Below are positions 46,656-57,131 of a DNA stretch of 57,759 nucleotides, piece by piece. Positions within the stretch are counted from its first letter, which is position 1. Each line of letters opens with the position of its first letter. The stretch spans positions 1-57,759 of the forward strand of contig JAKIUC010000029.1 of assembly GCA_021647785.1 (NCBI GenBank), in the 5' to 3' direction. The notes beneath the pieces are model-generated. The model searched no databases, had not been told where the DNA came from, and saw only the letters and a program-made list of their open reading frames with translations. Position numbers and translations under genes: made by a program. The stretch comes from Melioribacteraceae bacterium. GTDB taxonomy: Bacteria; Bacteroidota; Ignavibacteria; Ignavibacteriales; Melioribacteraceae.

Positions 46656-46837
46656 TTTATTTTCCTCATAAATCTATTCTACAAATATAAACTTTATAAT
46701 TTGTTTTTGTCTGTTAGATGAAAAAAAGGGAAGAATGATTCATAAGTATATGGTTATTAGAATTAAAACAATAACTTTATTCAATATAAATTCTTATTTT
46801 AAATCTATTAATTAACAATTATTCTGGTATGGAATTT

Positions 46838-48322
46838 ATGAAATATTTTTTCTTAGTTTTATTCTTTTTCCTTTGCAGCATTACATTTTCACAAAACCAA
46901 AATCCTAAAAGAGAATTTAGAGCCGCTTGGATTGCAACGGTTGTAAATATTGATTGGCCCCTTAGCAAAAACAATTCGGTTGAACTTCAAAAAGAAAATT
47001 TGGTTAACCAGCTTGATTCACTTGCAGATGCTGGAATGAATGCCGTTCTCTTTCAAGTACGGACTGAGTGCGATGCACTTTACAAATCTAACTTTGAGCC
47101 TTGGTCGCACTGGTTAACAGGCGAGCAGGGTAAAGTGCCAGAACCGTTTTATGACCCGCTTCAATTTGCAATAGAAGAATCGCATAAGCGAGGAATGGAA
47201 CTACACGCATGGTTTAATCCTTACCGTGCGGTACGTGATACAGCCCTTTATCCATTGGATGAAAGCCACGTATCTGTAAAACATCCCGAGTGGATTATTA
47301 AAGCAAAAAAACTTAAAATACTTAACCCTGGCTTACCAGAAGTTAGAACACACATTTTAAATGTTGTGAACGATGTAATAATAAATTACAACATTGATGG
47401 AATTCACTTTGATGATTATTTCTATCCGTACGAACCAAAAATATCAAATGAAGATTCTCTCACATTCCTTAACCATAGCAGAGGTATTACAAACATTGAC
47501 GATTGGCGAAGGGATAATATAAATCAACTAATGAAAGATATTTATGAAATTATAAAAGCAGAAAAACCATATGTAAAATTTGGAATTTCACCATTCGGAA
47601 TTGTCCGGAACGAATTTGCCGGTACAAATGGATTTAATTCGTTTGATGTAATCTACTGCGATCCATTAAATTGGCTCGACAACAAAATTGTAGATTACAT
47701 AACCCCGCAAGTCTATTGGGAAATTGGACACAAGTTGGCAGATTACTCTAAACTTGTTCCATGGTGGGCAACAGTTGCAACAGAAAGGCATTTGTATATT
47801 GGACAATACTCGAGCAAAATGTCTGCACCAAATTATGATGGCAACAAAGCCGAAATTGGAAATCAAATACGTTTGAACAGAAGTACTCCAAATGTTCTTG
47901 GCTCTGTTTACTTCTCCGCAAAATCGATTACACGCAATTGGAGCAGGCTTGCAGACTCGATGAAAAACAATTGGTACAGCAATATTGCACTTCCCCCAGT
48001 AATGGCGTGGTTAGATTCAGTTCCTCCATTGAAACCAGAGAATGTTCATTTGGTTAAAACAAAATCCGGATTATTAATTTATTGGAATATGCCTGATGCT
48101 GCTGCAGATAATGAATTTCCGAATTACTACTTAGTTTATAAATTTAACTCTAAAGATGAAATAGATTTAAGCAAATCGCAAAATATTGTTACTAAAGTAT
48201 TAAATAAAAAAACGAGCTATTTTAATCTGAATGAAAAGAAGGGAAAGTCGATTTATGTAATTACATCTGTTGATAGGCTTCATAATGAGAGTGAGGGTGT
48301 TGTTTTGGAAATTGATAAATAA
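46838..48322 (+). CDS. GHL10 (DUF187, YngK-like) glycoside hydrolase-like protein
   Basis: About 494 residues from ATG at 46838, preferred for GGAA four bases upstream; ATG at 46829 is also in frame. Signal peptide ending ITFSQ, then a TIM-barrel-like GHL10 domain: 'REFRAAWIATVVNIDWP', 'NAVLFQVRTECDALYKS', 'GMELHAWFNPYRAVRD', 'IDGIHFDDYFYPY'. A fibronectin III-like domain follows (about 395-494). Periplasmic or secreted; family members act on peptidoglycan or polysaccharide, substrate unknown. It diverges from clpB. Confidence 0.88.
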   Translation: MKYFFLVLFFFLCSITFSQNQNPKREFRAAWIATVVNIDWPLSKNNSVELQKENLVNQLDSLADAGMNAVLFQVRTECDALYKSNFEPWSHWLTGEQGKVPEPFYDPLQFAIEESHKRGMELHAWFNPYRAVRDTALYPLDESHVSVKHPEWIIKAKKLKILNPGLPEVRTHILNVVNDVIINYNIDGIHFDDYFYPYEPKISNEDSLTFLNHSRGITNIDDWRRDNINQLMKDIYEIIKAEKPYVKFGISPFGIVRNEFAGTNGFNSFDVIYCDPLNWLDNKIVDYITPQVYWEIGHKLADYSKLVPWWATVATERHLYIGQYSSKMSAPNYDGNKAEIGNQIRLNRSTPNVLGSVYFSAKSITRNWSRLADSMKNNWYSNIALPPVMAWLDSVPPLKPENVHLVKTKSGLLIYWNMPDAAADNEFPNYYLVYKFNSKDEIDLSKSQNIVTKVLNKKTSYFNLNEKKGKSIYVITSVDRLHNESEGVVLEIDK

Positions 48323-48441
48323 TTAGAGAAGCACTTTTGCCAAATGATGACCCTCTTTGGGGAGATGTTCAAAATAATATTGGTGTTCTTTATAACATCA
48401 GAGGTGAAATAGATATTGCTCCACAGTTAGGTAACAAGTAG
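48319..48441 (+). pseudogene. Scar of a third TPR-CHAT paralogue
   Basis: From the GHL10 stop onward, about 100 bases match the TPR region of the downstream gene near 51626-51721 at roughly 90 percent, joined to about 20 bases matching that gene's last codons and stop ('ccacagttaggtaacaagt' against 'ccacagttaaataacaagt' near 53726). The junction is at TTGC, present at both edges in the intact gene. So a third copy has been deleted, leaving a TPR stub and the stop. Confidence 0.85.
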
Positions 48442-48523
48442 CAATACTAAAACTACTTACAATTATTAAATTTCTTCAAAAAAAACTGTATATTGAAACA
48501 TAAAACAGAGTTTATAACAAACG

Positions 48524-51112
48524 ATTAAAAATATACGTACACTCCTAAAAATATCGCTAAAGATTATTCTATTTTCGTTATTCTTTTCCTGCCAAAACGA
48601 AATTGAACCTAAAAAAACTCAAATTATAAATCAAGAGTCAGAGATAATATTGTCTTCCAATAACCTAATGGCAATTGCAGATTCATTAGCAAAACAAGTA
48701 AAATATGATAGCTCCAATTCGATCCTAAAAAAATTATATCAAAATTATAAGTTAAATAAGAAATATGATCTAACCGTAAAAACTCTAAATAAAATTGCAT
48801 CAAATTTTGATGAATTAGGAAGATGGGATTCTCTTCAAATTTATCTTAAAAAAGCCCGGGTTATTGTGGAAACTCATTTAGAATTAGATAATCTCTTAAC
48901 AGCAGAAACCTATTACTTATTCGGATCGCTTTTTGTGGAAATATCAGAACTTGATTCAGCCGAGATTTATTTGGACAAGTCTTTTCTTATTCGCGAGAGA
49001 AAATTAGGAAAGGAACATCAGCTTATAGCCGATATATTAATGCTTAAGGGGCGGATTGAATTTTTGAGGGGCAATTTTGAAAAAGTACTCGATTTTGTAT
49101 TAACAAGTCATAAAATTTACAAACAAATTGGTGAAAACAACGAAACTGTTTCCGGAGGCTATAATAATGTAGCCATCGCATATACATACTTAAATGATTA
49201 TTCAACCGCCATGACTTACTTCGATTCGGCGATTTACATGAATATTAGTCGCTATGGGTTTGCCCACCCAGAGGTTGCGCAAGGTATTTCTAACAAAGCT
49301 GTGATCTTTTCGATAATGAACAAAGTTGATTCCGCTATCTACTATGACGAAAAAGCATTAAGTATTTATGAAAAAGTTTACGGTAAAGGACATCCTGAAA
49401 TTGCCAAAGTTCTAAATAATCTTGGAGCAGAATACCAGAGACTAACCGATTACCAAAAAGCTGCAGAATATTTTAACAAAGCTTTGGATGTTAGCCAATC
49501 AATAAATGATACGCTCAGCTTAGGTATTTCATTTGCGTATCTCAATTTGGGCGATATATATTCTGTTCTCGGTAACTTTGAATTGTCGATAAAATCCTAT
49601 TTGAAATCTGCGGATCATTTTAAAAGAATTAATGGCGAAGAGGATTTATTAACAACAGATGTTTATTTGTTTTTGGCAAATACATACCTATTTCAAAACC
49701 AAAGATCGAAAGCAAAAAGATATGCTGAAAAATCGCTAAAAATAAGAAGGAAATTATTTGATGAAAAATCTGTTAATTTAGGTCAGCCTTACTATCAGGT
49801 GGCAAGAGTAAAAAACGCATATGAACAATTTGATGAAGCTATCTATTTTGCAAAAAAATCTGTAGAGATATATGAAATTGCAGGGAGTAACGAGTATTAT
49901 TATTTGTCCAATTCTTATTTTCTTCTTTCCAAGATATATTTTTCAACAAATGATTTAGAGAATGCACTTAAATATTGTAACAAATCCCTCGCATCTTTCA
50001 AAACCGGGATAGATTTGGCTTTCAATAAATTTGAATCGCTGAGCAATTTTAGTTCAAATTCCGAAATGCTAAACGTGCTGGCTTTTAGAGGAAAAATATA
50101 TAAGAAATTATTTAAGGAAACAAAAGATACAGATTACTTAAGATCTGCGAAAATTGACATTTCTAATGCAATAAAACTTATTGAAGAAGTGAGGCGTTAC
50201 CTTTCTGCCGAAACATCAAAAGTAATTGCCGGTAGTAAAAATAGAGAGATTTATTCTGATGGAATTGAAATAGCATATTTATCTTATCTTACATCTAAAA
50301 ATGAAGAGGATTTTATTTTTGGATTAAATTTGTCCGAACAGGCAAAAGCTCTTGTTCTTTTTGAAAATTTAGAGTACAAGAAAGCAGCTGAATATTCAGG
50401 TGTTTCCGAGTCTCAGTTGGAGCTTGAAGAGTCATTGAAACAGTCAATACGATTTTATTCAAGGCTAATTGAAGATGGAAAAAATTCAGCAGAACCTGAT
50501 TCAGTAGAGGAAATAAATTATCAAAAGGAATTGTTTAACTACAGACGAAAGTTGGACAATTTGCACGACAAATTTGAAACCGAATACCAGGAGTTCAACA
50601 GAACAACTAATATACCTGATGAGTTGACACTTGATGAAATTCGGAAAGGTATTCTTGATAGTAACCAATCTGTAGTTGAATATTATTTAGCAGATAATGA
50701 GATTTTTATTTTCTTTATTTCAAATAATAGGTACGAATTTATTAAGGTAGCCAAGCCTATAAACCTAAACAATTCTGTCCAAACTTTACTTGATGGGATT
50801 ACTAAACAAGACCAAGCGGTATTTTCTAAACATTCGTTTTCGATTTATAATGCGATCTTTGAGCCAGTAGAAAAATTCATTTCAGGCACACGGTGTTTAA
50901 TTATTACGGATGGTATTCTTGGCTATATTCCGTTTGATGCGTTGTTATACGCAGAGGCTGATGAAACAAAAAACTATAAAAAACTTCCATATTTGATAAA
51001 CAAATATTCATTTGGTTATGCCTTCTCTCTAAATGTTATGCAGAACTCCAAAGACGAAAACAATAAAGTAAATAATTTTTTAGGAATTGCACCACAATTA
51101 AGCAACAAATAA
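48524..51112 (+). CDS. TPR lipoprotein ending in the N-terminal part of a CHAT domain (copy 1)
   Basis: About 862 residues if started at 48524; TTG at 48650 is the first usual start codon. The frame upstream of the TTG encodes a lipoprotein signal (KNIRTLLKISLKIILF, then SLFFSC), so translation probably begins at ATT 48524, or the start has been lost. TPR pairs fill the middle ('YNNVAIAYTYLNDYSTAMTY', 'KVLNNLGAEYQRLTDYQKAA'), then a coiled coil, then the first CHAT strands (TDGILGYIPFDALLYA, 'YLINKYSFGYAFSLNVM', 'NNFLGIAPQL'). It stops there: the catalytic His and Cys segments are absent. Periplasmic sensor or scaffold by inference. Confidence 0.75.
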   Translation: MKNIRTLLKISLKIILFSLFFSCQNEIEPKKTQIINQESEIILSSNNLMAIADSLAKQVKYDSSNSILKKLYQNYKLNKKYDLTVKTLNKIASNFDELGRWDSLQIYLKKARVIVETHLELDNLLTAETYYLFGSLFVEISELDSAEIYLDKSFLIRERKLGKEHQLIADILMLKGRIEFLRGNFEKVLDFVLTSHKIYKQIGENNETVSGGYNNVAIAYTYLNDYSTAMTYFDSAIYMNISRYGFAHPEVAQGISNKAVIFSIMNKVDSAIYYDEKALSIYEKVYGKGHPEIAKVLNNLGAEYQRLTDYQKAAEYFNKALDVSQSINDTLSLGISFAYLNLGDIYSVLGNFELSIKSYLKSADHFKRINGEEDLLTTDVYLFLANTYLFQNQRSKAKRYAEKSLKIRRKLFDEKSVNLGQPYYQVARVKNAYEQFDEAIYFAKKSVEIYEIAGSNEYYYLSNSYFLLSKIYFSTNDLENALKYCNKSLASFKTGIDLAFNKFESLSNFSSNSEMLNVLAFRGKIYKKLFKETKDTDYLRSAKIDISNAIKLIEEVRRYLSAETSKVIAGSKNREIYSDGIEIAYLSYLTSKNEEDFIFGLNLSEQAKALVLFENLEYKKAAEYSGVSESQLELEESLKQSIRFYSRLIEDGKNSAEPDSVEEINYQKELFNYRRKLDNLHDKFETEYQEFNRTTNIPDELTLDEIRKGILDSNQSVVEYYLADNEIFIFFISNNRYEFIKVAKPINLNNSVQTLLDGITKQDQAVFSKHSFSIYNAIFEPVEKFISGTRCLIITDGILGYIPFDALLYAEADETKNYKKLPYLINKYSFGYAFSLNVMQNSKDENNKVNNFLGIAPQLSNK

Positions 51113-51176
51113 TTGTTATTTTTAAGTGTGGGTAAAATCCCATCTTAAGATTTCGCTATACTTTAAGAAGGAACTT

Positions 51177-53744
51177 ATGTGTATAAATCATAAACTGTTA
51201 TTTTTGGTTTTTCTTATTACTCTTGTTTCCTGCAGCGAAGAACGCCACAAAGAAAATAAAGAACAAAAAGTTAAAGAAATAATTCTGCTAAATAATAACC
51301 CATTTGCTCTTGCAGATTCCCTTGCAAACAAAGCCAAGTTCGATAGTTCTAATATAATTTTGGAAACTATATTAAAGCACCATTCCGAAAAGAAAGAATA
51401 TGAGTTTGCAGTTGATGCACTAAATAAATTGGCTTACAATTATCGAAAACTTGGTAACTATAACACTGCTTTTATTTTATGCGGAAAAGCAGATTCAATT
51501 TCTGCTGCTTTTCTCGATTCAACTAATTTGCATATTGCACAGACATACTATTTGCTTGGTTTGATGAATAGGGACTACGGACGAATTGATGAGGCTTTCT
51601 CTTTTTTTGATAAATCATTAAAAATTAGAGAAGCACTTTTACCAAATGATGATCCACTTTTGGGAGATATTCAAAATAATATTGGTGTACTTTATAACAT
51701 CAGAGGTGAAATAGAACTTGCTCTTGGGCATTATCTTAAAGCTCTAAAATTAAGAAAAAAACGTGGGGAGTTCGATAAATCTGTAAGTTCAACTTATATG
51801 AATATTGCCTTAACCTATCAAGATATAAGGAAGTACAAACAAGCAGTTGCTTACCTTGATACTGCATTAACAATTAGTAAAAATATTTATGGTGAAAACA
51901 ATCCTCTTTCAGCAGATATATTAGTTAACTTGGCATCGAATCAACAAGACCTTGGGCAAATTGATTCTGCAATTATCACTAACAAAAAGGCGGTTTCTAT
52001 ACTTGAAAATATCTACGGAAAAAACCATCCTACAATTGCTGCAGCTTACAATAATTTAAGTGTTATATATCTATTTGTTACAGATTATTTAAATGCTATT
52101 GAATATGCTCAAAAATCGATAGATATCAAGCTGGCTTTGAATGCAGAAATGAGCTATGAAATTTCGGATAACTACCTTAATCTTGGAGAAGCATATTTAA
52201 ATCTTAATAAATATGATTTAGCAATTAAAAATTTTCTAGAAGCAGAAAAAATTCTTAAAACATTTCTGGATGAAGATAGCTATGAGGCTACAAAAACATA
52301 CTTATATATAGCAAAAACTTATTCTGCAAAAGGAAAGAATAAAAAAGCACTTAAGTTTGCAAAAAAAGCTCTTAAACTACGTATTAAAAAACATGGTTAT
52401 AAATCTTTTGAAGTTGCTGATGTAAATTGGGCTATTGCAGAAATTTACCTTGCAACGAAAATGTATGATGAGGCTATTCAATTTGCAGAAAAAGCAATTG
52501 CTGTCTATAAAATTGAAACGGAAGAAGTACATTATAAATTAGCAACATGCTATTTAATAATAGCAATATCAAAATTTGAAAAAAATAAATTTGAAGAAAC
52601 AATTGAATATTGTAACAAAGCTATTTCAGGTTTAATTGATACTAAAAATGTAGATGCCGATAACCCCCAATTATTTGAAAAAGGGATAAGCAGTTATGTT
52701 GTGCAGATTACAGAACTCCGTGGTAGAGCAAGTTATGAATTATTTAACCGAACCCGAGAAACTCTTTTACTTGAAAATGCTAAGAAGGACTTTCTTGTCT
52801 CCATCGAATTATTAGAAAAAGCTAGGGAATCCTTTGTAATTGAAACTTCAAAATTCCGATTTGGCGCTTTAAATAAGGATGTTTTTGTTAGTGGAATTAA
52901 AATTGCATCTGAACTTTTTTCATTAAATAGTAATAAAGAAAATTTTCTGCTGGCATTAAATATATCAGAAAAAAGCAGGGCATTTACATTGCTCGAAAAA
53001 TTAAATGAAACAGAAGCTGAAATAAATTCGAGAATTCCAGATTTGTTGTTGCAAAAAGAGAAATCATTAAAAACCAATATTCGGTACTTTTCTCGTTTAA
53101 TAAAAGACGCAGAAAATTCAAAAGAATACGATTCAACTCAGGTAAACAATTATCGCTCAAATCTCTTTACTTCGCGGAGAGAGTTAGAGCTACTGACTAA
53201 TGAATTCAAACAAAATTATCCTGCATATAACAATTTGGTCTATCAAAAAAAATCAATTACATTGGATGATATCAGAACAGAAATATTGGATGAGGAGCAA
53301 ACCATTGTTGAGTATTTTATTGCTGAAAAAGTGATTTACACATTTATAATTTCGCACAATAGTTTTAGTTTAATAGAAATACCTTACTCTGAAGCGTTTG
53401 ATAAAACAATCCAAAATTTATTAGATGGAATAAAAGAGAATAATTTTGAGAAATATCAGAAATCTGCACACGCAACTTACCAAGTACTTTTTGAACCATT
53501 AACAGATTTTATTTTCGATGAAAGGATACTAATAATTAATGATGGTATTCTTGGCTACATTCCGTTTGATGCGTTGCTATACGCAGAGGCTGGTGAAATA
53601 AAAAACTATAAAAAACTTCCATATTTGATAAACAAATATTCGTTTGGGTATGCCTTCTCTCTAAATGTTATGCGGAGTTCAAAAGATGAAATTAATAAGA
53701 TAAATAATTTTCTTGGAATTGCCCCACAGTTAAATAACAAGTAG
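51177..53744 (+). CDS. TPR lipoprotein ending in the N-terminal part of a CHAT domain (copy 2)
   Basis: 855 residues from ATG at 51177 (AAGGA five bases upstream). Lipoprotein signal MCINHKLLFLVFLITLVSC, Cys19 the lipid site. TPR-like pairs run over about 40-560 ('QNNIGVLYNIRGEIELALGH', 'AAYNNLSVIYLFVTDYLNAI'), a helical coiled-coil about 600-700, then CHAT-N (about 783-855) ending FLGIAPQLNNK. Catalytic residues are absent, as in copy 1. The last 65 residues are far more alike between the copies than the TPR parts. It is 64 bases after copy 1, same direction, and converges on the CHAT catalytic gene with a 3-base gap. Confidence 0.85.
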   Translation: MCINHKLLFLVFLITLVSCSEERHKENKEQKVKEIILLNNNPFALADSLANKAKFDSSNIILETILKHHSEKKEYEFAVDALNKLAYNYRKLGNYNTAFILCGKADSISAAFLDSTNLHIAQTYYLLGLMNRDYGRIDEAFSFFDKSLKIREALLPNDDPLLGDIQNNIGVLYNIRGEIELALGHYLKALKLRKKRGEFDKSVSSTYMNIALTYQDIRKYKQAVAYLDTALTISKNIYGENNPLSADILVNLASNQQDLGQIDSAIITNKKAVSILENIYGKNHPTIAAAYNNLSVIYLFVTDYLNAIEYAQKSIDIKLALNAEMSYEISDNYLNLGEAYLNLNKYDLAIKNFLEAEKILKTFLDEDSYEATKTYLYIAKTYSAKGKNKKALKFAKKALKLRIKKHGYKSFEVADVNWAIAEIYLATKMYDEAIQFAEKAIAVYKIETEEVHYKLATCYLIIAISKFEKNKFEETIEYCNKAISGLIDTKNVDADNPQLFEKGISSYVVQITELRGRASYELFNRTRETLLLENAKKDFLVSIELLEKARESFVIETSKFRFGALNKDVFVSGIKIASELFSLNSNKENFLLALNISEKSRAFTLLEKLNETEAEINSRIPDLLLQKEKSLKTNIRYFSRLIKDAENSKEYDSTQVNNYRSNLFTSRRELELLTNEFKQNYPAYNNLVYQKKSITLDDIRTEILDEEQTIVEYFIAEKVIYTFIISHNSFSLIEIPYSEAFDKTIQNLLDGIKENNFEKYQKSAHATYQVLFEPLTDFIFDERILIINDGILGYIPFDALLYAEAGEIKNYKKLPYLINKYSFGYAFSLNVMRSSKDEINKINNFLGIAPQLNNK

Positions 53745-53747
53745 AGG

Positions 53748-54518
53748 TTAAATTATCTTCTTTTTTCTTTTGATAAAATAGAACATCATAGATGTTAAGA
53801 GTAAAAGAAAAATAAATGAGTAAACTAGTTTCAATACGCCATTTAATGGCGAACCAAATTCTAATTTATCCAGATTTCCTATTGGTACAGTACCTGCCCA
53901 AAAAACAGGAGCGGCTGTTTTGCTGTTGCTCTTTTTCAAGTATGCCAATTTTGCTTCACGCAATGCTACATCTTTTGGTTTATTCTCTTTTAGTTCAGAA
54001 TAAAAATCTTTCATAATAGTTGCTGTTGAAATATCATCAATTGCCCAGAGACTCATTATTACCGAGGGGCAGCCGGCAAACTTAAAAGCTCGTGCAAAAC
54101 TAATTATTCCTTCACCTTTTTGAAGTTTTCCGGTCCCCGTATTACAAGAACTAAGGACTGCCATTTTTGCATTTAATTGCAAAGAGTATATTCTGGATAG
54201 AAATAGTGATTCATCTTCTTCATCCAAATTAGGATTGTTGTATAAGTGAAATTTTGAAGAGAGCGGATTTAACTCATTAATTTCGGTATGAGCTGCAATG
54301 TGAATTATGTCATATTTTTCAATAGAGTTTAAGATGTTTTTTTTAGTAGCTTCTTTACCTAAAAGAAGTTCACCACTAAGAAGGTCTGAAATATATTGTA
54401 CCTCTATTCTAGCAAAAGGGAGCGGTGCTAATGAGGCACGTGTTTTTAATGTATCTTGTGCAGCAATACTGGCACACACAAATAATAAAAAACCAAAAGG
54501 TAAAATTTGCTTATTCAT
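53748..54518 (-). CDS. Membrane-anchored catalytic part of a CHAT (caspase-like) protease, without the N-terminal part
   Basis: 256 residues. A signal peptide (about 1-20, ending SIAAQ) is followed almost at once by the CHAT C-terminal part: 'RASLAPLPFARIEVQYI', 'GKEATKKNIL', IIHIAAH with catalytic His77, 'AVLSSCNTGTGKLQKGEG' with Cys125, 'AGCPSVIMSLWAIDD'. A C-terminal membrane span (about 229-248) ends in KRKKK. A normal CHAT protein would have TPRs and the strands now found in the two plus-strand lipoproteins before 'RASLAPLPF'. Start overlaps the anti-sigma-like gene by eight bases. Cysteine peptidase activity is expected from the intact dyad but unproven. Confidence 0.85.
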   Translation of the reverse strand: MNKQILPFGFLLFVCASIAAQDTLKTRASLAPLPFARIEVQYISDLLSGELLLGKEATKKNILNSIEKYDIIHIAAHTEINELNPLSSKFHLYNNPNLDEEDESLFLSRIYSLQLNAKMAVLSSCNTGTGKLQKGEGIISFARAFKFAGCPSVIMSLWAIDDISTATIMKDFYSELKENKPKDVALREAKLAYLKKSNSKTAAPVFWAGTVPIGNLDKLEFGSPLNGVLKLVYSFIFLLLLTSMMFYFIKRKKKII

Positions 54519-55251
54519 TTACATTTATCTCCGTAATTATTTCATTAACTCTATCGGAATAATCGTAGCTTTCTTTAATATTATTGAGATGAGAAATAGC
54601 TTCTTTATTTTTTTCTAATTTCAAATAAGCTAATGCTATGTACCAATTTGCTTCATTATAAAAATTACTTTCCTTGTTTTTTGTTAGCGGAAGTAGAGCC
54701 TCACTTGCTTCTGTTGGTTTATCCAACACCAATAATGAAACTCCTTTGTAGAAATCAACTTGTTCATTGCTCACCTCTTTAATTTCATCCAATTTTTCAA
54801 CGGCAGAATCAAAATTCCCCGAGTTATAAAACAGCATTGCTTCTGCAAGAATACTATCACTACCGCTGCTTCTGGTATGAACTGTAACATCAGGATAAAC
54901 CTCGAAGTACCTATTAAACAATTTTTGTGAGTAGGGCTGATTAAAAATATTAAGCAGCGCCGTTACTGCAATTATTGTTATAACTGCAACTGCCGAATAA
55001 ATAAAAGAATATTTTCGGAAGTGGGAGATATTATTTATTTCAATTTCACGGATGTAAGAAAGGTCATCCTTTAATGAATTGGCATCTAACATCTCAGCAC
55101 CCTCAACTGCATCAGAACAAAGTGGGCAATCAATTAAATGTGATTCAATTTTATGCAATTCATCATCCGATGTTTTTCCTAATCGGTAATTAATTATTTC
55201 ATTATCCGATAAACATGCAGAATTTTCAAATATTTTTGATTCTATATTCAT
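54511..55251 (-). CDS. Zinc-finger (zf-HC2) anti-sigma-like membrane protein with TPR-like C-terminus
   Basis: 246 residues. HLIDCPLC (His38, Cys42, Cys45) is the H-x3-C-x2-C zinc site of ZAS anti-sigma factors. One membrane span (about 83-103) is followed by a periplasmic helical region with TPR-like repeats ('LAEAMLFYNSGNFDSAVEKL', 'YNEANWYIALAYLKLEKNKE'). It should hold the neighbouring sigma factor at the membrane. 64 bases after the sigma gene and eight-base overlap with the CHAT gene. Confidence 0.85.
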   Translation of the reverse strand: MNIESKIFENSACLSDNEIINYRLGKTSDDELHKIESHLIDCPLCSDAVEGAEMLDANSLKDDLSYIREIEINNISHFRKYSFIYSAVAVITIIAVTALLNIFNQPYSQKLFNRYFEVYPDVTVHTRSSGSDSILAEAMLFYNSGNFDSAVEKLDEIKEVSNEQVDFYKGVSLLVLDKPTEASEALLPLTKNKESNFYNEANWYIALAYLKLEKNKEAISHLNNIKESYDYSDRVNEIITEINVNE

Positions 55252-55315: not shown

Positions 55316-55912
55316 TCATAAATGTTCTATCTCTTTTTCAAGAATTAATTTTAAATTGCGTTTTCCATTTTGAATATTACTTTTAACTTTGTTTTCAGAT
55401 ATCTCTACAAGCAGAGAAATCTCTTTATAGGATTTTTTTTCCAAATAAAAAATTTTCAAACATTCTTTTTGATCATCCTTTAATAATTCTAATTTTTTAA
55501 GAATATCCTTACTTCTAAATTTCTCCTTTTCTATAAGATGCAAAAAGCCATCATTTTCCATAAAATTTAGTGAATTTTTTTCTTGAACATCTTCAAGTCT
55601 TTCAAAAACATTTGTTTTTCTTAATTGCATTAAGCAATGGTTTCTCGTTACTGCGTAAATCCAACCTTTAAAATAACCTATTGTTCGATTTGGTAATGTT
55701 TTTATCAATTCTTCGAAAATATCCATTACTCCATCTTTTGCTGCTTCCCTATCTTTTAGATATTTAACACAAACTAAAAAAATTAAATGGGAGTATCGTT
55801 TATAAAGTTCACCAATATAAACCTCTTTTCGGCTACTTTTATATTTACCCACTAATTCTTCATCGGAGAGTGTTGTTAAATCATATTTTTGCTTAAATAA
55901 GTGCATATACAT
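55316..55912 (-). CDS. ECF-type RNA polymerase sigma factor
   Basis: 198 residues. Region 2 'IGELYKRYSHLIFLVCVKYL', 'GYFKGWIYAVTRNHCLMQLR' and region 4 helix-turn-helix 'YLEKKSYKEISLLVEISENK' define a sigma-70 family ECF member. ATG at 55912 or 55906; no clear ribosome site. With the zf-HC2 protein and the CHAT gene it forms a three-gene unit, so CHAT expression or function is probably tied to this signal path. Confidence 0.88.
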   Translation of the reverse strand: MYMHLFKQKYDLTTLSDEELVGKYKSSRKEVYIGELYKRYSHLIFLVCVKYLKDREAAKDGVMDIFEELIKTLPNRTIGYFKGWIYAVTRNHCLMQLRKTNVFERLEDVQEKNSLNFMENDGFLHLIEKEKFRSKDILKKLELLKDDQKECLKIFYLEKKSYKEISLLVEISENKVKSNIQNGKRNLKLILEKEIEHL

Positions 55913-56052: not shown

Positions 56053-57131
56053 TCCAAAGTAGTAAAAAGCGAAGGTCAAAAGCTTAGAGAGAGTTACAGT
56101 TCTGCAAAAATTGAAGAAATTAAAAAGTTAAAGGAAGAACAGTATCAAGATGGATTTTTGAGGGATATTTTTGTTGATGTTTTTGGTTATATTTTAGCTC
56201 CAGACGAAAATCATAATCTTGCAAGAGAATTTAAGAACATTGCCGATAGCAAAAAAGCAGATGGTGCAATTTTAAAAAATGGAATTAAAGTAAGAAAAGA
56301 CCTACTATATAGTTATAAAGTTGATGGGAATTATAAACCATTTTTGTTAGGTAAAAACATCAATATATTTTCACTCAATTATGATGGTAATTACATCCAT
56401 TATTTGCCAAAAAATGAAAAACTATATACAAATCAAGCATTTCGAACGAAAGACATATTTGAACAAGAAAAACTAATTGTTCGCCAAATTTTGGGAAAAA
56501 GAATTATCACAACATTTGTAATGACAACTATTATACTGACCAGACCACTTATGTAATAAACAAAAAATCAGATAAAGCTGATTTACATTATTTATTAGCA
56601 ATACTAAATTCTAAAATAATCTATTATTATTTCAATAACATATTTTCTGATAACAAAACAACCTTTCCCAAAGTTAAAAGGTCTCAGCTATTGGAACTTC
56701 CAATAATTGAATTAAACAAAGAAAAACAAAACCACTTTATTCAAAAATCGGAACAAATGTTGGAGCTAAACAAACAGTTCCAACAAAAGAAAACCACTTT
56801 TTTAAGAAGATTAAAAGATAATTTTGCAGCAACAACCACTACAAGGGGACATGTCCTCTTGGCAAAACATGATCCCTTGGCAATTACCAAGAAATTAGAT
56901 GCCTTTTATAATTTCGATTTCAAAACATTTGTTACAGAACTAAAAAAACAAAAAGTTGTAATCTCACTTAAAGACCAAGTTGAGTGGGAAGAGTTTTTTA
57001 ATAATTACAAAACAGAGATAAATAATTTGCAATCTGAAATAAACAAAACCGACAAAGAAATAGACCAAATGGTTTATGAGTTATATGGATTGACTGAGGA
57101 AGAGATTGAGATTGTTGAGGGTGCTGTTTGA
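56053..57131 (+). pseudogene. Decayed type IIG restriction-modification enzyme
   Basis: An N-terminal part ('EEQYQDGFLRDIFVDVFGYI', 'AREFKNIADSKKADGAILK') like the start of Eco57I/TaqI-C-type R-M proteins passes directly into a target-recognition-like segment ('KPFLLGKNINIFSLNYDGN', 'EKLIVRQILGKRI'), so the methyltransferase core of several hundred residues is missing. A frameshift near 56515 moves the reading into another frame that continues 'DNYYTDQTTYVINKKSDKAD' and 'SQLLELPIIELNKEKQNHF'. It ends with the conserved-looking 'MVYELYGLTEEEIEIVEGAV'. A small 'TTTRGHVLLAKHDPL' insertion coincides with a palindrome at 56844-56861. Not functional. Confidence 0.8.

What the first reader, a model, noticed from the sequence alone, without database searches (positions are those of the whole stretch)
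48524..54518. Candidate split CHAT system: TPR sensor halves and a separate membrane-anchored catalytic half
Two TPR lipoproteins on the plus strand end after the first CHAT strands (GYIPFDALLY, YLINKYSFGYAFSLNV, FLGIAPQL) and lack the His/Cys segments. The convergent minus-strand gene begins with a signal peptide and goes straight to the rest of CHAT, keeping His77 and Cys125, then a membrane anchor. Together the parts make one CHAT domain. Because both paralogues, and the scar of a third, end at the same codons, truncation preceded duplication, which argues for a retained two-piece design instead of random decay. All pieces carry export signals, so the complex would act in the periplasm.
Basis: partly seen in the sequence, partly recalled or inferred. 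Interest (0 to 1): 0.85.

Follow-up and report, generated by a model that had tools for sequence, protein, structure and literature searches.

The report
Caspase-like protease split between two genes
In a few uncultured bacteria a caspase-like enzyme of the cell envelope appears to be encoded as two separate genes, one catalytic half and one or more different sensor halves, beside a gene switch that it may control; if so, it is a natural mix-and-match protease.

Summary
Plus-strand TPR genes A (to 51112) and B (51177-53744) end just after core strand FLGIAP (PF12770 positions 7-85 and 1-74). The convergent minus-strand gene 53748-54518 has a signal peptide, the rest of CHAT (87-289, with His77 and Cys125) and a membrane anchor.

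It is not local decay. I found 8 catalytic and 13 sensor halves in 6 genomes: four genera of the window's family, one genome of another family in the class, and one unplaced MAG. Seven of 8 catalytic halves lie tail-to-tail with 1-3 sensor halves; all 8 follow a sigma factor gene. All 13 sensor halves keep G[IF][AS]P and stop 2-8 residues later, inside the linker that joins the parts in full-length relatives.

Best reading: an exported split CHAT protease with exchangeable sensor halves, perhaps cutting the adjacent anti-sigma factor. Assembly, catalysis and substrate are inferred; the halves could not be co-folded. Gene A lacks a usual start codon. Conserved CHAT-N beside divergent TPR within a locus is not special to split genes (control).

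The parts
48300..48441 (+). Scar of a third TPR/CHAT-N copy: a B-like TPR stretch joined in frame to the common 3' end IAPQLGNK*
   Evidence: 88% identity of 48300-48421 to 51602-51723; 27-nt 3' end family D3; sequence
48524..51112 (+). Sensor half A: signal-like N-terminus with lipobox, TPR array, CHAT-N to FLGIAPQLSNK; no ATG/GTG/TTG before the lipobox (start unresolved: ATT 48524 or ATA 48533)
51177..53744 (+). Sensor half B: lipoprotein (MCINHK...LVSC), TPR array, CHAT-N to FLGIAPQLNNK
   Evidence: AF2 model of its last 337 residues, final 19 residues under pLDDT 50
50898..51118 (+). CHAT-N end of A, 87% identical in DNA to that of B
   Evidence: family D1; last 76 codons dS 0.60, dN 0.10 against dS 1.05 or more in the five upstream blocks
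53530..53750 (+). CHAT-N end of B, the copy matching 50898-51118
53748..54518 (-). Catalytic half: signal peptide, CHAT from LAPLPFARIEV onward with His77 and Cys125, C-terminal membrane helix with basic tail
   Evidence: PF12770 90-289, E 1.2e-49; model pLDDT 79.6; DdvA CHAT Z 17.2
54511..55251 (-). Putative anti-sigma factor: HxxxCxxC motif, one membrane helix, C-terminal TPR region; overlaps the catalytic half by 8 nt
   Evidence: zf-HC2 in 3 of 5 members scanned, the window's copy not among them
55316..55912 (-). ECF sigma factor
   Evidence: Sigma70_r2 and r4_2; TIGR02937 68.4 bits over cut-off 42.9

Best explanation
This is a two-piece TPR-CHAT (caspase-like) protease of the cell envelope. 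The catalytic half (membrane anchored, both catalytic residues) lacks the first core strand of the CHAT fold; each sensor half carries TPR repeats plus the N-terminal CHAT subdomain and ends with exactly that strand as a free tail. Docking of the tail completes the fold, so catalysis depends on a sensor half being present and suitably placed. One catalytic half can serve several sensor halves that differ in their TPR region. The likely output is cleavage of the membrane anti-sigma-like protein encoded just upstream, releasing the ECF sigma factor. Shown: the split, its position, its conservation, gene order, predicted folds of the separate halves. Inferred: assembly, catalysis, substrate, topology.
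For: Complementary Pfam coverage in the window and in G728 (C halves 96-289 and 83-289; N halves 3-77, 3-81, 2-65). Same cassette in four genera of the family, in G728 and in L085. In the family search, separate N and C halves occur in the same 4 of 79 genomes; the other 7 genomes with an N match carry both parts in line on one strand. 13 of 13 N halves keep G[IF][AS]P and stop 2-8 residues later. The junction lies in the variable linker between FLGIAP and LPFARIEV of longer relatives. Catalytic halves: dN 0.36-0.49 with dS saturated in 3 comparisons. The tail holding the conserved strand is under pLDDT 50 when modelled alone. A sigma factor gene lies upstream of 8 of 8 catalytic halves. Csx29, a TPR-CHAT protease, cleaves an inhibitor of an ECF sigma factor (passages of PMC10028731).
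Against: No co-fold of the halves and no biochemistry. The low confidence of the tail may also come from the thin alignment (10 rows). Gene A lacks a usual start codon. L132 has a catalytic half without a sensor in the 18 kb fetched, and L177/L178 are sensors without a neighbouring catalytic half. High CHAT-N and low TPR identity among sensors of one locus is no sign of a shared partner: 6 of 6 tandem full-length pairs, which carry their own catalytic part, show it too (CHAT-N 0.65-0.94, TPR 0.30-0.63). Whether the halves come from one gene or two, and whether all split loci share one origin, is unresolved; the N half of L085 groups with unanchored full-length proteins (93/83). The substrate is proposed from gene order and analogy only.
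Confidence: 0.7

Rival explanations
1. The halves assemble as proposed, but the target is not the anti-sigma protein: for example envelope proteins, or a protease cascade, with the sigma factor only controlling expression of the catalytic half.
For: Gene order alone cannot tell substrate from regulator; no cleavage site was tested. Of 10 full-length relatives' loci checked, the neighbour that I took for a sigma factor matches a sigma model in 8 (L086 and L090 only under the cut-offs) and not in L065 or L066, so the link is common but not universal.
Against: A sigma factor gene precedes 8 of 8 catalytic halves; Csx29 cuts an ECF sigma inhibitor.
Confidence: 0.25
2. The catalytic half works (or signals) alone and the sensor halves are regulators or decoys that do not complete its fold.
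For: AF2 gives the catalytic half a caspase-like model on its own (pLDDT 79.6) that matches CHAT structures with Z up to 17.2; L132 has no neighbouring sensor.
Against: The strand FLGIAP is missing from it and kept at the end of 13 of 13 sensor halves; the loop after Cys125, residues 128-134, is under pLDDT 50.
Confidence: 0.14
3. Decay: remains of full-length TPR-CHAT genes broken by chance.
For: A scar of a third copy and a missing usual start codon in gene A; broken full-length CHAT genes do occur in the class (L192, L195, L200).
Against: Same break and same convergent layout in 6 genomes, long open frames, purifying selection; the broken genes keep their parts on one strand.
Confidence: 0.03
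4. Programmed DNA inversion that joins a sensor half to the catalytic half in some cells.
For: Convergent layout with alternative N parts.
Against: Among the 25 longest of 153 weak inverted repeats in the window region none pairs the N-half 3' end with the start of the CHAT part of the C half; in 4 related loci one 16-nt pair was found, in L063 near the 5' end of the catalytic gene. Each half has its own stop codon, and the C half its own signal peptide.
Confidence: 0.02

Closest known systems
Full-length TPR-CHAT proteins near sigma factor genes in Bacteroidota and relatives (e.g. L086, L087, L089, L068)
   Same: Same domains in the same order; C-terminal membrane helix; in tandem arrays also divergent TPR parts with alike CHAT
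   Different: One polypeptide, each with its own catalytic part; a variable linker joins what are separate genes here
Csx29 and Craspase TPR-CHAT (type III-E CRISPR), PDB 8eex, 8eey, 8d9g
   Same: TPR + CHAT; cuts an inhibitor of an ECF sigma factor (PMC10028731, passages read); fold match of the C half to 8eex (Z 13.6, rmsd 3.0, 161 residues) and of the N half to 8d9g (Z 15.5, rmsd 4.9, 269 residues) and 8eey (Z 14.5)
   Different: Single chain activated by RNA through Cas7-11; the window's C half scores 18.5 bits against a Csx29 cut-off of 300
DdvA, 'transmembrane anti-sigma factor', PDB 8rot/8rw5
   Same: Best structural match of the catalytic half (Z 17.2, rmsd 2.6, 164 residues); the entry names join a CHAT domain and an anti-sigma role in one chain
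   Different: One chain; its paper was not available to me, and whether its CHAT is catalytic is not known to me
Caspases (cleaved into large and small chains; recalled)
   Same: Active enzyme built of two chains of one fold
   Different: Caspases are one gene cut after translation, after the catalytic Cys; here two genes are split before the catalytic His

Membership tests
CHAT protease domain (PF12770) | Match to the family profile over its cut-off | tested here: met
   C half 169.7 bits against 24; N halves 26.8 and 26.3 bits, but 23.2 and 23.3 (just under)
CHAT protease domain (PF12770) | Catalytic His and Cys | tested here: met
   H77 and C125 invariant in 8 of 8 catalytic halves
CHAT protease domain (PF12770) | Whole domain in one polypeptide | tested here: not met
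   Positions up to 85 and from 87 lie on different genes on opposite strands
CHAT protease domain (PF12770) | Proteolytic activity | not testable with these tools
   No biochemistry possible
Type III-E Craspase (Csx29) | Csx29 model over its curated cut-off | tested here: not met
   18.5 bits against 300
Type III-E Craspase (Csx29) | Cas7-11 (gRAMP) in the same locus | not tested
   Of the window outside the locus only four neighbouring ORFs were scanned, none a cas gene; the genome was not searched for Cas7-11
ECF sigma / membrane anti-sigma pair | ECF sigma factor | tested here: met
   TIGR02937 68.4 bits over 42.9
ECF sigma / membrane anti-sigma pair | Zinc-finger anti-sigma domain and membrane helix in the neighbour | tested here: inconclusive
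   zf-HC2 in 3 of 5 members but not the window's; H38, C42, C45 invariant in 5 of 5; helix by eye; the L133 neighbour matches no Pfam family

The most novel reading that the evidence does not exclude
A combinatorial split caspase: one membrane-bound catalytic half is completed in the periplasm by any of several sensor halves (two in the window, three in L134, and unlinked sensors in the same genome G728), each donating the missing core strand, so that different envelope signals converge on one protease that cuts one anti-sigma protein. It would be a tandem TPR-CHAT array whose catalytic part has been factored out into one shared gene. If the lipoprotein sensors sit in the outer membrane, activation would need parts from both membranes to meet.
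Probability: 0.33. Interest if true: 0.9.

Novelty: new variant of a known kind. Interest (0 to 1): 0.77.

Why it matters
It would be a natural split protease whose fold is completed in trans by a donated core strand, with exchangeable sensors on one catalytic subunit. It would give a testable role (release of a sigma factor) to TPR-CHAT genes that lie beside sigma factor genes, and a natural design for split-protease sensors.

Tried and rejected
Chance or pseudogene: rejected by the conserved relatives. DNA inversion: no fitting junction repeats. Known defence system: PADLOC gave only a weak BovA match (E 5e-5, 20.5 bits) to the catalytic half and a weak restriction-enzyme match (E 0.004) to the anti-sigma-like protein. 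PDB by sequence: only DdvA for the catalytic half (E 0.0028); the 60 listed matches of the sensor alignment are TPR proteins. The catalytic half also matches gingipains, separases and MALT1 by fold, as expected for the caspase-like class.

An argument withdrawn: sensors of one locus share 0.66-0.77 of CHAT-N but 0.35-0.48 of TPR, against 0.38-0.54 and 0.27-0.49 in full-length pairs of different genomes, and I first took this as a sign of a shared partner. The better control, 6 tandem full-length pairs in 4 genomes, shows the same or more (CHAT-N 0.65-0.94, TPR 0.30-0.63), so it is a habit of tandem CHAT genes. Another claim withdrawn on checking: that all 10 full-length loci inspected lie beside a sigma factor; it is 8 of 10, two of them weak.

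Origin of the halves: that the C half comes from membrane-anchored and the N half from unanchored full-length proteins is only half supported. Grouping the C halves with the unanchored type is rejected (p 0.0004; 0.01 with L076 added); for the N halves neither grouping tested to the end is rejected (unanchored p 0.42 and 0.38, three anchored Bacteroidales rows p 0.23). Of the ten clades asked there, two needed no test and one did not finish. One origin of all split loci is not rejected (C p 0.18, later 0.28; N p 0.41, later 0.25) but not shown. In one search I dropped 25 rows (distant or redundant) before building, and one wanted row (G761 full-length) was not added because my motif search missed it.

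Other short CHAT frames: I looked at 25: G086, G041, G120, six and 16. 21 run into a contig end; L192 is a frameshifted full-length gene, L195 and L200 follow a long same-strand ORF that looks like their broken first part, and L203 is a 63-residue remnant. None is a convergent split. Other short frames may stand in the parts that were cut from the listings.

Promoters: I printed upstream regions and saw no shared motif by eye; not pursued.

Literature: no paper on a split CHAT protease stood in the listings (open-access library only; listings capped at the rows shown; DdvA) gave one paper that I did not open. I read passages of PMC10028731 only; the rest are search listings.
Full report
OBSERVATION. 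The window is contig C67 of genome G000. Its 3' part holds, on the plus strand, a scar of a TPR gene (48300-48441), sensor half A (to 51112) and sensor half B (51177-53744); three bases further, on the minus strand, the catalytic half (54518-53748), an anti-sigma-like gene (55251-54511, overlapping it by 8 nt) and an ECF sigma factor (55912-55316). Against PF12770 the plus genes match only positions 7-85 and 1-74 and the minus gene only 87-289.

WHERE THE SPLIT LIES. In an alignment of 6 sensor halves, 5 catalytic halves and 55 longer relatives, the sensor halves stop just after the strand FLGIAP and the catalytic halves begin, after a signal peptide, at LAPLPFARIEV. In longer relatives these two are joined by a linker of variable length. 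Nothing conserved appears lost, and both catalytic residues are on the minus-strand half.

CONSERVATION. Searching the 79 held genomes of the family found the same convergent pair in three other genera, G034, G046 and G074. Whole C halves are 50-54% identical to the window's and N halves 33-37% to B (the N half of G034 is cut by the contig end). The order search (164 genomes) added none that I could recognise (short frames inspected). A scan of genome contigs gave 9 loci, of which 4 are split: these three and L085 of an unplaced MAG. A sample of 391 genomes of the class added G728, of another family, with three catalytic halves. Its loci are L133 (two sensors >< catalytic half, anti-sigma-like gene, sigma: the window's layout), L134 (three tandem sensors >< catalytic half) and L132 (catalytic half with no sensor in the 18 kb fetched). 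Two further sensors, L177 and L178, lie away from any catalytic half in the stretches fetched. In total there are 8 catalytic and 13 sensor halves in 6 genomes. The order of G728 (123 genomes) gave no other split in what was listed and inspected. Spacing between convergent stops is -11 to 74 nt in six loci (negative = overlap) and 322 in L085. A sigma factor gene stands upstream of 8 of 8 catalytic halves by Pfam.

SELECTION. Catalytic halves of the family differ from the window's by dN 0.36-0.49 with dS saturated. Sensors of one locus share 0.66-0.77 of the last 110 CHAT-N residues but 0.35-0.48 of the TPR part; sensors of different genomes share 0.42-0.46 and 0.32-0.37, full-length pairs of different genomes 0.38-0.54 and 0.27-0.49. 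But 6 of 6 tandem full-length pairs show the same (CHAT-N 0.65-0.94, TPR 0.30-0.63, and CHAT-C 0.75-0.95). So divergent TPR with alike CHAT is general in tandem CHAT genes and does not show a shared partner. It does suggest that in split loci the catalytic part of such an array exists once, for all sensors. Gene conversion contributes: dS is lower at the CHAT-N end than in the rest in the window pair (0.85 v 1.77), L133 (0.96 v 1.88) and L134a-b (1.28 v saturated), about equal in L134b-c (1.56 v 1.63), and saturated against 1.85 in L134a-c, where dN is still lower (0.18 v 0.45).

STRUCTURE. The catalytic half models with pLDDT 79.6. It matches the CHAT part of DdvA (Z 17.2, rmsd 2.6, 164 residues), SAVED-CHAT (15.8), Csx29 and gingipain RgpB (13.6 each) and separases (about 13). 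The C-terminal part of B models with pLDDT 83.6 and matches Craspase TPR-CHAT (Z 15.5, rmsd 4.9, 269 residues; much of this is helical). Its last 19 residues, which hold the conserved strand, are under pLDDT 50. A strongly conserved strand with no partner in its own chain is what a donated strand would look like, though the alignment had only 10 rows. In the catalytic half alone, residues 48-53 (GELLLG) form no strand; in a caspase-like sheet they would be expected to pair with the missing one (recalled, inference).

TREES. The C halves of the four family members form one clade (100/100) inside a set with L085 and six membrane-anchored full-length proteins (95/88); grouping with unanchored ones is rejected. 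The five N halves of the same four genomes form one clade (100/100), while the N half of L085 groups with unanchored full-length proteins (93/83). With G728 added, one origin of all split loci is not rejected for either half, nor shown. The full-length CHAT gene in the window's own genome (C20) lies on another branch.

MECHANISM. B and the sensors of L063 and L064 look like lipoproteins; those of G728 have an N-terminal hydrophobic segment (by eye). The catalytic half has a signal peptide and a C-terminal helix followed by basic residues, so its CHAT part should be periplasmic (inference). The anti-sigma-like protein has a HxxxCxxC motif, one helix and a TPR part beyond it. A periplasmic protease next to a membrane-spanning sigma inhibitor suggests cleavage and sigma release. 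Csx29 cleaving Csx30, an inhibitor of an ECF sigma factor, is a precedent for a TPR-CHAT protease (passages of PMC10028731). Among 10 full-length loci checked, 8 have a neighbour matching a sigma model, two of them under the cut-offs; L065 and L066 have none. What the TPR parts sense is unknown.

JUDGEMENT. Conserved two-piece design: about 0.95. Halves assemble into one CHAT fold: about 0.78. Active protease as a pair: about 0.70. Anti-sigma protein as substrate: about 0.4. Each figure is my estimate.

Noticed in passing
window 48518-48650: Gene A is open for over 860 codons but has no ATG, GTG or TTG before its lipobox: a rare start codon, an assembly error or early decay.
   Followed up: partly
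L177:5072-7489 and L178:6503-9013 (G728): Two TPR-CHAT-N genes that end at the same strand but have no catalytic half in the stretches fetched; L132 has the reverse.
   Followed up: partly
L185, L186, L187, L188: Tandem full-length TPR-CHAT genes with divergent TPR (0.30-0.63) and alike CHAT (CHAT-N 0.65-0.94): diversifying sensors on a homogenised protease.
   Followed up: partly
L085:4340-4495: A small ORF, lipoprotein-like by eye, on the minus strand lies between the two halves.
   Followed up: no
L065, L066, L067: Full-length TPR-CHAT genes without membrane helix lie tail-to-tail with anti-sigma-like genes, the layout the sensor halves have; a possible forerunner. A sigma model matches only in L067.
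   Followed up: partly
window 56158-56556: A short ORF matches the TaqI-like specificity domain (PF12950, E 2e-7), perhaps part of a restriction-modification gene.
   Followed up: no
window 46829-48322: Glycosyl hydrolase-like 10 gene that ends at the scar of the third sensor copy.
   Followed up: no
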